Shown in pieces: positions 43,377 to 47,941 of a stretch of 64,000 nucleotides of DNA. Source of the DNA: Xenophilus aerolatus. Lineage in GTDB: Bacteria; Pseudomonadota; Gammaproteobacteria; Burkholderiales; Burkholderiaceae_C. The notes below the pieces were generated by a model. That model did no database searches. It saw nothing but the letters and a program-made list of their open reading frames with translations, and was not told the origin of the DNA. The stretch lies in assembly GCA_029968055.1 (NCBI GenBank), contig JASCNX010000002.1, positions 310,001-374,000 of the forward strand, in the 5' to 3' direction. The translations under genes were made by a program, and so were the position numbers. How positions within the stretch are numbered: the first letter of the stretch is position 1; every line of letters starts with the position of its first letter.

Positions 43377-46334
43377 TCATTTGGCCAGGTGCTTGCCCAG
43401 CAGGCCGGCGAGTTCGAACATGGTCGCGCTGGGCTTGCCGAAGACGGCCTGCAGCTTCGCGTCGGCACGGATGCTGCGCTTGTCCGCCGGGTCCTGCAGG
43501 CCCTGGGCCTTGATGTAGTCCCACAGCTTCTTGGTCGCCTCGGTGCGCAGCACCGGCTCGTTGCCGATCACGGCCGCGAGCTCGGCGCTGGGCGTGAGGC
43601 CCGTGCCGGCCGTGGCCTTGCGCGGCGCCTTCGGAGCCGCCGACTTCTTGGCGGCAGGTGCGCTCCTGGCCGCCGGCGCCTTCTTGGCCGCTGCGGTCTT
43701 CTTCGCCGGCGCTGCCTTGGCTGCGAAGGTCTTGCGCGGGGGGAACTTGCTGGTGCGGGGCTCGAACTCGAAGGTCACCTTGCCCTCCTCGGCGTTCCAC
43801 ACCAGGAAGGCCTTGAAGGTGCGGCGCGTGCGCATGCTGACGAACTTGTCGAGCAGGTCGGTCTTGCCCTCGGCCAGCAGCTTGCGCACCTGCTCGGGCT
43901 CCACCGGCTGCTGCAGGATCACCTTGCCGGTCTTGAAGTCGCAGCTCGGCACCGCCTGCTGCGGCGTCGGCACCGAGTGCTCGCAGATGTAGTTCGCACC
44001 GAACTCGAACACGCGGCCCTTGCACTTGGGGCAGGGCCCCAGGCTCTCCTGGCCGCTGAGGTCGACGATCTCGCCCGTCTCGGCCGGGTCCTTGCCATCG
44101 TCGCCGAAGTCGAATTCCAGCTTCCAGTTCTTGTCCTCGTCGCTGTAGGCCAGGCGGATCTCGGCCACGAAGGGCCAGCCGGCCTTGGAGCGGAAGCCTT
44201 CCAGCGGGCCGATGTGCTTGTCGCGCACCAGCTGCTCGGCTTCGGCGACCTCGAAGGTGCGGCCCGCGGGCGACTTCGTGAAGGAAAAGCCGCAGGCGTC
44301 GGTGCCGTTGCCCGACTTGCCGGTGCAGGCGTAGCGCCGGTAGTTCTCGCGCACGATGCCGCCGCAGTTGGGGCAGGGCGCCTGGAGCGTCGCGTAGTCG
44401 CCCGGCACCGTGTCGCGGTCGTACTCCTTGGCCTTCTTGACGATGTGCTCGGTCATGGCCGCGATCTCGCGCATGAAGGCGTCGCGGCTGAGCTGGCCCT
44501 TTTCCATCTGTGCGAGCTTGTATTCCCACTCGCCCGTCAGTTCGGCCTTGGACAGTTCCTCCACGCCCAGGCCGCGCAGCAGCGTCATGAGCTGGAAGGC
44601 CTTGGCGGTGGGGATGAGCTCGCGGCCTTCGCGCAGCATGTACTTCTCGTTGAGCAGGCCTTCGATGATGGCGGCGCGCGTGGCCGGCGTGCCCAGGCCC
44701 TTCTCCTGCATGGCCTCGCGCAGCTCGTCGTCGTCGATGGTCTTGCCGGCGCCTTCCATGGCGCCCAGCAGCGTCGCTTCGGAATAGCGGGCCGGCGGGC
44801 GCGTCTTCAGGCCCTTGGGTTCCACCGATTCGACCTTCACCCGCTCGCCCGGCTTCACCGGCACCAGGTTCTTGCCGTCCTTCTCGTCGTCCTCGCTCAC
44901 GGCTTCCTTGCCGTAGATGGCCATCCAGCCCGGCCTCACCAGCACCTTGCCGTCGGAGCGGAAGGCGTACTTCTTCGCATCGCGCTCGACCGTCGAGATG
45001 CGCGTCGTGACCTGGAACTCGGCGCTGGGGAAGAACACCGACAGGAAGCGCCGCACCACGAAGTCGTACAGGCGCTGTTCCGCGTCCGACAGGCCGCTGG
45101 GCGCCTGCAGCGTGGGGATGATCGCGAAGTGGTCCGACACCTTGGCGTTGTCGAAGATGCGCTTGCTCGGCTTGACATAGTTGCCGTCGATCGCCTGCTG
45201 CGCGAAGGGCGCCAGGTGCTTCATGCCGCTCGCGGCCAGCATGCCCATCGTCTGCTTGACCACGGGCAGGTAGTCCTCGGGCAGCGCGCGCGAGTCGGTC
45301 CGCGGGTAGGTCAGCGCCTTGTGGCGTTCGTACAGCGACTGGGCCAGCGCCAGCGTGGTCTTGGCCGAGAAGCCGAAGCGGCTGTTGGCCTCGCGCTGCA
45401 GCGAGGTCAGGTCGAACAGCAGCGGCGAAGCCTGGGTCGTCGGCTTGCTTTCTTCCGTGACCGTCGCGGGCTGGCCGCGGGCCGCGTCGGCAATGGCACG
45501 CGCCTCGGCCTCGCTCCACACGCGGTCGGCGCGCTGCTCGGGGTCGGGTTCGCCGTTGGGAAGCAGCGGCGCGCCGGCCTTCTTCCAGGCCGGATCGAAA
45601 TACCGGCCAGGGTACTGGCCGGCCTCGGCACCGAAGATGCCGTGGATTTCCCAGTAGTCGCGGCTCACGAACTTGCGGATCTGCTCCTCGCGCTCCACCA
45701 CCACCGACAGCGTGGGCGTCTGCACCCGGCCCACCGTGGTGAGGAAGAAGCCGCCGTCGCGCGAGTTGAAGGCCGTCATGGCCCGCGTGCCGTTGATGCC
45801 CACCAGCCAGTCGGCCTCGGAGCGCGAACGCGCGGCGTCGGCCAGGCCCTGCATCTGCTGCTCGGTGCGCAGCGAGTCGAAGCCGTCGCGGATGGCCTGC
45901 GGCGTCATCGACTGCAGCCACAGCCGCCGCACCGGCTTGCCCAGCGGCTTGGCGCCGCCGGCGTACTGCTCGATCAGGCGGAAGATCAGTTCGCCCTCGC
46001 GGCCCGCGTCGCAGGCGTTGATGAGTTGCGTCACGTCCTTGCGCTTGGCCTGCTTGACCACCGCGTTCAGGCGCGTCTTGGTCTTGTCCACCGGCTTGAG
46101 GTCGAAATGCGGCGGGATCACGGGCAGGTGGGCGAAGCTCCACTTGCCGCGCTTGACGTCGTACTGCTCGGGGGCCTGGATCTCCACCAGGTGGCCCACG
46201 GCGCTGGTCACCACGTACTGCTCGTTCTCGAAATGCTCGTCGTGCTTGTCGAACTTGCCGGCCACCGGCGTGAGCGCGCGCACGATGTCCTGCGCCACCG
46301 AGGGCTTCTCCGCTATCACCAAAGTCTTCGTCAT
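43377..46334 (-). CDS. topB: DNA topoisomerase III with lysine/alanine linker and SWIB tail
   Basis: A 985-aa type IA topoisomerase. Toprim motif is ACDAGREGELIF; catalytic Tyr is in ALTYPRTDSR. Four-Cys pairs in CPNCGG and CPKCKG suggest zinc-binding segments at the C-terminal half. Residues about 845-890 are a Lys/Ala/Pro-rich linker like histone H1 tails. The last 80 residues are a SWIB domain (LTPSAELAAVIG, TKKLWDYIKAQGLQDP). It relaxes and decatenates DNA at forks; SWIB is a chromatin-type module also known from chlamydial topoisomerase I. ATG 46334 was chosen because MTKTLVIAEKPSVAQ is the family start. Confidence 0.9.
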   Translation of the reverse strand: MTKTLVIAEKPSVAQDIVRALTPVAGKFDKHDEHFENEQYVVTSAVGHLVEIQAPEQYDVKRGKWSFAHLPVIPPHFDLKPVDKTKTRLNAVVKQAKRKDVTQLINACDAGREGELIFRLIEQYAGGAKPLGKPVRRLWLQSMTPQAIRDGFDSLRTEQQMQGLADAARSRSEADWLVGINGTRAMTAFNSRDGGFFLTTVGRVQTPTLSVVVEREEQIRKFVSRDYWEIHGIFGAEAGQYPGRYFDPAWKKAGAPLLPNGEPDPEQRADRVWSEAEARAIADAARGQPATVTEESKPTTQASPLLFDLTSLQREANSRFGFSAKTTLALAQSLYERHKALTYPRTDSRALPEDYLPVVKQTMGMLAASGMKHLAPFAQQAIDGNYVKPSKRIFDNAKVSDHFAIIPTLQAPSGLSDAEQRLYDFVVRRFLSVFFPSAEFQVTTRISTVERDAKKYAFRSDGKVLVRPGWMAIYGKEAVSEDDEKDGKNLVPVKPGERVKVESVEPKGLKTRPPARYSEATLLGAMEGAGKTIDDDELREAMQEKGLGTPATRAAIIEGLLNEKYMLREGRELIPTAKAFQLMTLLRGLGVEELSKAELTGEWEYKLAQMEKGQLSRDAFMREIAAMTEHIVKKAKEYDRDTVPGDYATLQAPCPNCGGIVRENYRRYACTGKSGNGTDACGFSFTKSPAGRTFEVAEAEQLVRDKHIGPLEGFRSKAGWPFVAEIRLAYSDEDKNWKLEFDFGDDGKDPAETGEIVDLSGQESLGPCPKCKGRVFEFGANYICEHSVPTPQQAVPSCDFKTGKVILQQPVEPEQVRKLLAEGKTDLLDKFVSMRTRRTFKAFLVWNAEEGKVTFEFEPRTSKFPPRKTFAAKAAPAKKTAAAKKAPAARSAPAAKKSAAPKAPRKATAGTGLTPSAELAAVIGNEPVLRTEATKKLWDYIKAQGLQDPADKRSIRADAKLQAVFGKPSATMFELAGLLGKHLAK

Positions 46335-46436
46335 CAGGGGTCTCTCAACGGTTCGCCCCGGCCTGCGCGGGCCGGCCCCTCGTGGGGGCGGGCGTCGCCG
46401 GCAGGGCACCGGGGGCTCTCTATACTCTGCGCCTCT

Positions 46437-46489
46437 CGCGCGTGCACACGCACGTACGTACGTGTGTACACGCGCGCATGTGTGCATAT
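46437..46489. other. 53-bp alternating purine-pyrimidine tract (Z-DNA candidate)
   Basis: From C46437 to T46489 the strand alternates pyrimidine-purine without a break. It contains CGCGCG, GTGCACACGCACG, ACGTACGTACGT and GTGTACAC; CACGTACGTACGTG is a perfect palindrome. Such tracts form left-handed Z-DNA under negative supercoiling and can extrude cruciforms. It lies between the divergent topB (start 46334) and SET gene (start 46511). Confidence 0.85.
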
Positions 46490-46510
46490 TCAAACTATCA
46501 GAACTCGGCG

Positions 46511-47128
46511 ATGCCTTCCAAATCCCCTTCCTCGCCATCGACTTCGCCGCCCGCGGGCGGCCGCCGCATCCAGACGAGGCGCTCGGGGGTCCACGGCAAC
46601 GGGGTGTTCGCCGTGCAGGACATCGCCGAGGGCGAGCGGCTGATCGAATACAAGGGCGAGGTCATCGACTGGGAAGAGGCGCTGCGCCGCCACCCGCACG
46701 ACCCGGCCCAGCCCAACCACACCTTCTACTTCCACATCGATGACGAGCGTGTGATCGATGGCGGCGTGAAGGGCAACGCCGCACGCTGGATCAACCATTC
46801 CTGCGAGCCGAACTGCGAGGCCGACGAAGAGGGCGGCCGCATCTTCATCAAGGCGCTGCGCGACATCGCGGCCGGCGAGGAACTGAACTACGACTACGGC
46901 CTCGTGATCGACGAGCCCTACACGCCGCAGCTGCTGGCCGACTTCCCCTGCTGGTGCGGCTCGGCGAATTGCCGCGGCACGCTGCTCTCGCCCAAGGACG
47001 ACGACGTGCCGGGCAAGAAGAAGAACAAAAAGAAGAAGAGCAAGGACAAGGGCAAGGGCAAGGACGCGAAGGCCGGCAAGAAGGACAAGAAGAAGAAAAA
47101 CAAGGGCGGGAAAGGCAAGGGCGGCTGA
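46511..47128 (+). CDS. SET-domain protein lysine methyltransferase
   Basis: A 205-aa bacterial SET protein. SAM/lysine-site motifs: RWINHSCEPNCEA, EELNYDYG and post-SET CWCGSANCRG (three zinc-binding cysteines). It would transfer methyl from SAM to protein lysine. Residues about 158-205 are a polylysine/glycine tail (KKKNKKKKSKDKGKGK), which could bind DNA or RNA or be its own substrate. Divergent from topB, whose product has a histone-like lysine-rich segment. ATG 46511 is not strongly supported by a ribosome binding site, but the SET fold starts soon after. Confidence 0.87.
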   Translation: MPSKSPSSPSTSPPAGGRRIQTRRSGVHGNGVFAVQDIAEGERLIEYKGEVIDWEEALRRHPHDPAQPNHTFYFHIDDERVIDGGVKGNAARWINHSCEPNCEADEEGGRIFIKALRDIAAGEELNYDYGLVIDEPYTPQLLADFPCWCGSANCRGTLLSPKDDDVPGKKKNKKKKSKDKGKGKDAKAGKKDKKKKNKGGKGKGG

Positions 47129-47941
47129 TTGAGCGCCTGGACGCCCGCCGCCGTCGATGCGCTGCGCCACGCGCTGGCCGTGCACGAACCCGCCATGGCC
47201 GTCGAGGCCGTGGACGCCATCGATTCGACCAACACCGAGCTCATGCGCCGCGCGCGGGCGGGCGACGCCCGGCCCGTGCTCCTCGTGGCCGAGCGCCAGA
47301 CCGCCGGGCGCGGCCGCCTCGGCCGCAACTGGCAGAGCGCCCAGGCCGCGGTCGACCCGGCCGCGTCGCTGACCTTTTCGCTGGCGCTGCCGCTGGCGCC
47401 GCAGGACTGGTCGGGCCTGTCGCTGGCCGTGGGCGTGAGCGTGGCCGAGTCGCTCGACCCCGACGGGGCGGCCGGCGTGAAGCTCAAGTGGCCCAACGAC
47501 CTGTGGGTGGCCGATCGCAAGCTGGCCGGCATCCTGATCGAGACCGCATCGCTGCCGGGCGCCGCCGCCACCGAGCGCCAGGTGGTCATCGGCATCGGGC
47601 TGAACGTCGGCGCGCGCGACGGCGACGCCATGCGCACGCCGCCGGCCTGGCTGCGGCAATGGCAGCCCGGGGCCACGCCGCAGCAGGCGCTGGCGGCACT
47701 GGCGCCCCCGCTGCTGGCCGAGTTGCTGCGCTTCGCGTCGCAGGGCTTCGCGCCGGTGCTGCCGCGCTTTGCGGCGCGCGATGCGTTGCGCGGGCGCGAG
47801 GTGGTGCTCAGCGACGGGCAGGCCGGCCTGTGCGAAGGCGTCGGCCCCGGCGGCGAGCTGCGCGTGCGCACGCCGGCCGGCGTGCAGGCCATCCACAGCT
47901 CGGAGGTCAGCGTCCGGCCCCGTGGCATGGCGCTGCCCTGA
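47129..47941 (+). CDS. birA: Biotin--[acetyl-CoA-carboxylase] ligase
   Basis: A 270-aa biotin protein ligase that attaches biotin to the carboxyl carrier of acetyl-CoA carboxylase. Motifs: GRGRLGRNW (biotinyl-AMP loop), KWPNDLWV, and the C-terminal RGREVVLSDG domain. No N-terminal helix-turn-helix, so it is not a repressor. It begins at TTG directly after the SET stop (TGATTG), suggesting coupled translation; I see no better start. Confidence 0.85.
   Translation: MSAWTPAAVDALRHALAVHEPAMAVEAVDAIDSTNTELMRRARAGDARPVLLVAERQTAGRGRLGRNWQSAQAAVDPAASLTFSLALPLAPQDWSGLSLAVGVSVAESLDPDGAAGVKLKWPNDLWVADRKLAGILIETASLPGAAATERQVVIGIGLNVGARDGDAMRTPPAWLRQWQPGATPQQALAALAPPLLAELLRFASQGFAPVLPRFAARDALRGREVVLSDGQAGLCEGVGPGGELRVRTPAGVQAIHSSEVSVRPRGMALP

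What the first reader, a model, noticed from the sequence alone, without database searches (positions are those of the whole stretch)
46437..46489. 53-bp perfect alternating purine-pyrimidine tract between topB and a SET methyltransferase
Every base from 46437 to 46489 alternates pyrimidine/purine, including CG, CA/TG and TA steps, with an internal palindrome (CACGTACGTACGTG). This is long for a bacterial chromosome and lies in the divergent region of a topoisomerase gene. Inference: it may flip to Z-DNA or extrude under negative supercoiling and so couple topB (a supercoil-changing enzyme) to local superhelicity.
Basis: partly seen in the sequence, partly recalled or inferred. Interest (0 to 1): 0.72.

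Follow-up and report, generated by a model that had tools for sequence, protein, structure and literature searches.

The report
Family-wide Z-DNA-type tract at topoisomerase gene
Beside what appears to be this bacterium's only topoisomerase of its class lies a stretch of strictly alternating base types that its bacterial family keeps although the letters themselves keep changing, as expected if evolution preserves the ability of the DNA to flip into left-handed Z-DNA.

Summary
In detail: 46437-46489 is 53 nt of perfect pyrimidine/purine alternation, and the pattern (RY)12 occurs nowhere else in the 5.12-Mb genome. It is a family feature. Of 164 fetched family loci (110 genera), 138 have a perfect run of at least 16 nt at this place, against 0 of 365 control windows. 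Letters turn over while alternation and phase persist: breaks mostly keep phase, substitutions are mostly transitions, and interruptions are mainly GG/CC, the cheapest for Z-DNA. Conserved -10-like boxes flank the tract and face each other. The module goes with topB, the genome's only type IA topoisomerase. Best reading: a selected B-Z switch sensing torsion at the gene whose product relieves it. Not shown: Z-DNA in vivo, the promoters (a consensus scan found none), any effect on topB, its sign. Against a strand-symmetric Z account: C is strongly enriched on the SET strand, and a few members carry an ordinary hairpin instead. RNA folding beyond what alternation gives is weak.

The parts
46437..46489 (.). 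53-nt perfect pyrimidine/purine alternating tract
46451..46464 (.). palindrome CACGTACGTACGTG inside the tract
46421..46426 (+). left conserved box TATACT (TACAAT in most genera): putative -10 element of the SET side
   Evidence: position read; conservation; promoter role inferred, consensus scan found none
46490..46500 (-). right conserved box (plus TCAAACTATCA; minus TGATAGTTTGA): putative extended -10 of the topB side, hexamer at 46492-46497
   Evidence: position read; conservation (part of the consensus is imposed by the search pattern); promoter role inferred
43377..46334 (-). topB, DNA topoisomerase III with C-terminal repeats and a SWIB domain; only PF01131 protein of the genome
46511..47128 (+). 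SET-domain protein gene with a lysine-rich tail

Best explanation
The tract is a selected, DNA-level torsion sensor. SHOWN by comparison: Comamonadaceae keep in-phase pyrimidine-purine alternation, not a sequence, at a fixed place between two conserved -10-like boxes in the control region of topB; in most genomes examined topB is the only type IA topoisomerase. INFERRED: the property selected is the ability to flip from B-DNA to left-handed Z-DNA at a set negative superhelical density (model estimate about -0.033 in a large domain to about -0.048 in a 2-kb domain). INFERRED: the boxes are promoters facing each other, so the tract is the first transcribed stretch of both topB and SET, and the B-Z junctions fall within about ten bases of the boxes. 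When negative supercoiling rises (gyrase, or behind polymerases leaving this region) the tract flips, absorbs turns, and alters promoter opening or the entry of polymerases, so that the supply of the relaxing enzyme follows superhelicity. I favour more topB at more negative supercoiling (homeostasis), but nothing here shows the sign; a polymerase block would give the opposite.
For: Genome-unique tract. Perfect runs of 16 nt or more in 138 of 164 family loci, 92 of 110 genera, vs 0 of 365 control windows. Alternation between the boxes 0.866 vs 0.524 elsewhere in the loci; 82 of 100 breaks keep phase vs 30% in the background. Transitions/transversions 117/47 in tracts vs 794/1133 in flanks, and 40/14 vs 285/274 in a second set. 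Phase-keeping interruptions are GG or CC in 80 of 99, 46.8 expected, matching the published cost order (PMC3024258). Predicted threshold lower at the module than at the best other site of the locus in 92 of 93 genera. Longer perfect runs use weaker steps, which narrows the threshold. The module stays with topB when SET has moved or was not found. Single type IA topoisomerase in the own genome and in 29 of 36 family genomes.
Against: No experiment. Strand bias: C is 82% of pyrimidines on the SET strand whatever the GC content, G is 66% of purines; a strand-symmetric Z element does not need this. Some members lack alternation, and two of them (L081, L106) carry an ordinary hairpin at the place. 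The lead of the tract over other sites vanishes in a 2-kb domain, where only its first 18 nt would flip, and at -0.06 the simple model prefers another GC-rich stretch (47579-47890). The length/step trade has 42 contrasts for and 33 against by sign. Other families with one topB-type enzyme lack the tract. No consensus promoter found and no conserved -35. Aligners favour in-phase alignment, so the counts are not independent of alternation.
Confidence: 0.5

Rival explanations
1. The selected object is an RNA stem-loop in the 5' leader. The topB-strand RNA reads (G-pyrimidine)n, which pairs with itself by G-C and G-U and so tolerates C/U changes; the loop protects or regulates the leader.
For: Both strands of the window region fold better than dinucleotide shuffles (z -3.2 and -3.3). 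Mean z -1.46 over 93 genera, more negative where alternation is lower (rho 0.456), and L081 and L106 carry hairpins without alternation. Excess over alternation-keeping shuffles is small but significant (mean z -0.49 on the SET strand, -0.37 on the topB strand, 90 genera). topB-strand RNA is more stable in 78 of 93 genera. Explains the strand bias.
Against: The window's own tract folds no better than alternation-keeping shuffles (L004). Interruptions do not pair with each other more than in shuffles (25.0 vs 29.9, 46 genera). Pairing of topB-strand RNA is not above shuffles, and its U are paired less. A hairpin does not require alternation in stem and loop.
Confidence: 0.2
2. The tract is an array of RNA polymerase pause sites. 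Read on the topB strand it offers pyrimidine at -1, G at +1 and G at -10 in every second register (consensus recalled), slowing polymerase just after the start.
For: G enriched at the topB-strand purine positions. A consensus elemental pause sequence acting on diverse RNA polymerases exists (PMC6336406, passages; the letters of the consensus are recalled).
Against: A few pause sites would do; unbroken phase over 20-53 nt and the GG/CC preference at breaks are not predicted. No pausing was measured and no pause score was computed here.
Confidence: 0.12
3. A DNA-binding protein (nucleoid-associated or structure-specific) recognises the flexible alternating tract in B or Z form.
For: Fixed place between conserved boxes; conservation of a shape-like property.
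Against: No base-specific core is conserved inside the tract; no candidate protein was sought or found.
Confidence: 0.1
4. No function: slippage and biased mutation produce and keep the tract.
For: Two-base gaps are the commonest in the alignments, as slippage would give.
Against: Flanks have more transversions than transitions (about equal), which would destroy alternation. One place in 92 of 110 genera and no control window with 16 nt. Alternating patterns are reported as under-represented in beta-proteobacteria (PMC4060949, passages). Units are irregular mixtures, not one repeat.
Confidence: 0.04

Closest known systems
Supercoiling-responsive topoisomerase promoters (E. coli topA, gyrA/gyrB; recalled)
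   Same: Control region of a topoisomerase gene, proposed to read superhelicity
   Different: There the promoter itself responds; here a separate alternating tract between facing boxes, at a topB-type enzyme, is the proposed sensor. Response not measured.
Engineered Z-DNA inserts in E. coli plasmids (Peck and Wang 1985, Rahmouni and Wells 1989, Sheridan, Benham and Hatfield 1999; recalled, the second also seen in the reference list passage)
   Same: Alternating tracts that flip under negative supercoiling and affect transcription
   Different: Those are inserted simple repeats; this is a natural, single-copy, irregular tract kept by a whole family.
Flipons / Z-DNA near transcription starts in eukaryotes (search listings only)
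   Same: Proposed DNA-structure switches near starts of transcription
   Different: Bacterial chromosome; no Z-binding reader protein known here; one conserved locus.

Membership tests
Z-DNA-forming sequence element | Pyrimidine-purine alternation long enough to flip at attainable superhelicity | tested here: met
   53 nt; model threshold -0.0328 (large domain) to -0.0476 (2 kb); energies PMC3024258
Z-DNA-forming sequence element | Changes over evolution follow B-Z energetics (phase kept, GG/CC breaks) | tested here: met
   weaker support for the length/step trade
Z-DNA-forming sequence element | Strand symmetry | tested here: not met
   C 0.82 of pyrimidines vs G 0.66 of purines on the SET strand; not a requirement of Z-DNA but unexplained by it
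Z-DNA-forming sequence element | Left-handed form detected in vitro or in vivo | not testable with these tools
   needs chemical probing or topoisomer gels
Supercoiling-responsive topoisomerase promoter | Transcription start(s) at the locus | tested here: inconclusive
   conserved -10-like boxes; consensus scan found none; no start mapping
Supercoiling-responsive topoisomerase promoter | Output changes with superhelicity | not testable with these tools
   needs reporter or RNA measurement
Structured RNA leader | Known RNA family match | tested here: not met
   Rfam search of 46200-46700: six matches, all far below gathering scores
Structured RNA leader | Pairing beyond what alternation gives; compensatory change | tested here: inconclusive
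   small excess, slight on the SET strand, none on the topB strand, breaks not compensated
Microsatellite / tandem repeat | One repeated unit | tested here: not met
   irregular mixture of CG, CA, TG, TA; only one two-copy family of 21 nt at 76%
RNA polymerase elemental pause array | Measured pausing at YG steps of the tract | not testable with these tools
   form of the sequence only; consensus letters recalled

The most novel reading that the evidence does not exclude
A natural, single-copy bacterial regulatory element whose conserved information is helical handedness: selection keeps not the bases but the ability of a tract of about 20-53 bp to flip to Z-DNA at a set torsion, trading length against step quality, between two facing promoters, so as to set the dose of the only type IA enzyme that relieves that torsion.
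Probability: 0.4. Interest if true: 0.93.

Novelty: new variant of a known kind. Interest (0 to 1): 0.82.

Why it matters
Whether Z-DNA has a selected function in bacteria is an old open question, argued mostly from engineered plasmids (recalled). Here is a natural element with a family-wide evolutionary record that separates alternation from sequence, beside a gene whose product acts on the very stress that makes Z-DNA. It offers one defined locus, many natural variants with different predicted thresholds, and named genera with cultured strains (Variovorax, Acidovorax, Polaromonas, Comamonas), so the question becomes directly testable.

Tried and rejected
Sequence conservation as the explanation: rejected at family level, since tracts of different genera differ while alternation stays. 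At close range the sequence itself is kept: the window and five relatives share the identical 53 nt.

SET as sole owner of the element: rejected. In G116 the SET gene lies elsewhere without a tract, and both boxes with a broken tract are at topB. The four SET loci outside the family have no topB in the 1-kb stretch upstream and no tract; in one of them (G040) topB adjoins SET tail to tail instead.

Compensatory hairpin changes: GGG...CCC breaks first looked like compensation; the shuffle test did not support it. The relation may also partly reflect what dinucleotide shuffles keep.

Start-codon avoidance as cause of the strand bias: T is rarer before A (112 of 795) than before G (324 of 1399; counts), the reverse of avoiding NTG.

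Deamination by topB transcription as cause of the bias: it would lower G on the SET strand, but G is near the flank value (0.66 vs 0.69) while C is raised (0.82 vs 0.61).

A first version of the length/step test that allowed breaks was set aside as biased, since only long cores can hold breaks; one search uses perfect runs.

Other long tracts: G020 C25 lies among short repeats in what looks by eye like a phage or mobile region; G009 C47 is a CGTACG-type repeat. A third, G019 C3, was not looked at.

Papers. Searches for the element itself or for topB with Z-DNA showed no description of it (listings and starts of abstracts of a held library). A search for start-site maps in these genera showed none among the 12 listed of 107. 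Passages only were seen of PMC4060949, PMC6336406, PMC9369019 and PMC3024258.

Full report
OBSERVATION. The run at 46437-46489 is as described: 53 nt of CG, CA/TG and TA steps without a break. The next longest run of the window is 17 nt, and the longest in 60 simulated sequences is 27. In the window's genome (5,117,920 bases, 11 contigs) the pattern (RY)12 occurs only inside this tract. The topB start (46334) and the SET start (46511) leave 176 bp. Pfam and NCBIfam name topB as DNA topoisomerase III, with a SWIB domain. The other protein is named by Pfam as SET domain; NCBIfam gives it only a match far below cut-off.

FAMILY-WIDE. SET relatives were found in 186 of 200 family genomes at E<=1e-40 (whose list of places was cut). 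I read 164 family loci of 110 genera (30, 134 through) and 4 loci outside the family. In the 380 nt at and upstream of SET, 144 of 164 have a perfect alternating run of 14 nt or more, 138 of 16, 112 of 20 and 89 of 24. Of 365 windows of that length elsewhere in the same loci 5 reach 14 and none 16. By genus 92 of 110 reach 16 and 77 reach 20. Among 80 named loci, the best 80 of a capped scan by similarity to the window's SET protein, 78 reach 16: Variovorax, Acidovorax, Xenophilus, Pseudacidovorax, Ramlibacter, Polaromonas, Rhodoferax, Limnohabitans, Diaphorobacter, Simplicispira, Comamonas and others. This set overlaps the unnamed one and is not independent. The nearest named relatives place the window in the Xenophilus/Pseudacidovorax group of Comamonadaceae.

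UNIQUENESS. (RY)14 matches in 15 of 15 genomes of the genus, in 19 of 36 genomes in all, and in 0 of 14 of other families. By my arithmetic from the tract lengths, the module accounts for every match in 13 of the 15. Of the 160 family genomes I could pair 121 with a module locus: 60 module tracts satisfy (RY)12, and in 44 of these it is the only such tract of the genome. 28 genomes have some other such tract, 12 of them without one at the module, and 49 have none anywhere. A published survey reports alternating patterns as under-represented in beta-proteobacteria (PMC4060949, passages).

ANATOMY. Between topB and SET lies a fixed module: TACAAT (TATACT in the window), about ten nt, the tract, a short spacer, TCANNNTANC, then the SET start. 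Strict patterns found both boxes in 136 of 164 loci, 93 genera; these 136 are the set of the statistics below. Many of the other 28 show a near variant by eye. On the minus strand the right box reads TGNTANNKTGA, an extended -10 type; the left box is a -10 type on the plus strand. Neither has a conserved -35, part of the right consensus is imposed by the search pattern, and a consensus promoter scan of the window found nothing. If both are promoters they face each other and the tract is the first transcribed stretch of both genes; this is inference.

WHAT IS CONSERVED. Alternation between the boxes is 0.866 against 0.524 in the rest of the loci (93 genera, p 6e-17), and 82 of 100 breaks inside cores have even length, so phase is kept, against 30% in the background. 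In 50 independent pairs tracts show 117 transitions and 47 transversions, left flanks 794 and 1133, right flanks 112 and 206; 86 of 123 gaps, edge gaps included, are even. In 20 pairs of named loci the figures are 40/14 against 285/274, and of 23 internal gaps 17 are even (15 of length 2, 2 of length 4) and 6 odd. Aligners favour in-phase alignment, so these counts are not independent of alternation; near-identical pairs are the safest part.

WHY Z-DNA. Published B-Z energies (PMC3024258, Table 1 passage) make CG cheapest, then CA/TG, then TA; among breaks GG/CC is cheapest, AG/CT and AA/TT dearer, and a phase shift costs about 4 kcal more. Of 99 phase-keeping interruption units 80 are GG or CC (40 each), 46.8 expected with a 65% GC target (p about 1e-11; 12 units of other kinds not counted). 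The window tract has the lowest predicted threshold of the window: -0.0328 in the large-domain limit, -0.0378 at 10 kb, -0.0413 at 5 kb, -0.0476 at 2 kb. At 5 and 2 kb only its first 18 nt would flip, and at 2 kb its lead over other sites is 0.0001. At -0.06 the simple model prefers a GC-rich stretch at 47579-47890. The module's threshold averages -0.0345 (sd 0.0033) against -0.0451 for the best other site of the locus, lower in 92 of 93 genera (energies recalled from Z-Hunt, close to those). Longer perfect runs use weaker steps, so thresholds vary less than when lengths and energies are re-paired (p 0.0020 for runs of 12 or more, 0.021 for 17, none of 5000 permutations for 21). Phylogenetic contrasts on a FastTree tree give r 0.375, p 0.0008, but by sign only 42 to 33: suggestive only.

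WHOSE ELEMENT. In G116 SET lies elsewhere without a tract, and both boxes with a broken tract (longest run 11 nt) are at topB. Of 13 family genomes given to because SET was missing at the cut-off or apart, 11 had a topB match and 9 gave a readable start. Besides G116, L189 and L192-L196 keep the module with longest runs of 11-21 nt (L189 still seems to have SET beside it, by eye), and L190 and L191, one genus, keep box-like sequences but no tract (6 nt). In 7 loci a minus-strand gene, TlpA-like by eye, sits between topB and the module (gap 533-562 nt), so the module then heads a unit with topB. Of 18 genomes of other families given to, 10 had a topB match; these have at most 10 nt of alternation upstream of topB.

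WHY HERE. The genome has one protein of PF01131, the window's topB. Of 36 family genomes 29 have exactly one and 7 have two to four; within the genus it is 10 of 15. So topB probably stands in for topoisomerase I and its dose should matter. A review passage says topoisomerase I is usually the enzyme present alone and topoisomerase III relaxes weakly (PMC9369019). Families with one topB-type enzyme and no tract exist too, so the tract is one solution, not a necessity.

AGAINST. C makes 82% of pyrimidines on the SET strand independent of GC (slope 0.01), G 66% of purines, near the flank value (90 genera); CA exceeds TG in 79 genera and falls below in 7. A pure Z element does not need this. An RNA hairpin in the topB leader using G-U pairs, or an array of pause sites, would explain it. 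For the hairpin: the window region folds well on both strands against dinucleotide shuffles, z averages -1.46 over 93 genera and is stronger where alternation is lower, two non-alternating members carry hairpins, and topB-strand RNA is the more stable in 78 of 93 genera. Against it: the excess over alternation-keeping shuffles is small, breaks are not paired with each other, topB-strand pairing is not above shuffles (0.699 vs 0.705), while the SET strand is slightly above (0.604 vs 0.587). Mixed function is possible.

VERDICT. Solid: a family-wide element whose conserved feature is in-phase alternation, tied to the topB control region. Likely: Z-forming ability is what is kept. Open: promoters, Z-DNA in the cell, the effect on topB and its sign. 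The searches of the held paper library showed no description of such an element.

Noticed in passing
43377-46334 (minus): topB is the only PF01131 (type IA topoisomerase) protein of the genome, and 29 of 36 family genomes have exactly one; it carries a SWIB domain.
   Followed up: partly
46511-47128 (plus): The SET protein has a lysine/glycine-rich tail, and the genome holds a second SET homologue at G000:C1:399370-399843 (45% identity).
   Followed up: no
L031, L051, L054, L055, L058, L078, L087, between topB and the module: A minus-strand gene that looks TlpA-like by eye is inserted between topB and the module, in five genus codes other than the window's or more.
   Followed up: partly
L081 and L106, between the two boxes: Non-alternating inverted repeats stand where other genera have the alternating tract.
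   Followed up: partly
L190 and L191, upstream of topB: One genus keeps box-like sequences but has lost the alternating tract (longest run 6 nt): a natural deletion to compare.
   Followed up: no
L187:962-1060: Another long alternating tract, among short repeats in what looks by eye like a phage or mobile region.
   Followed up: partly
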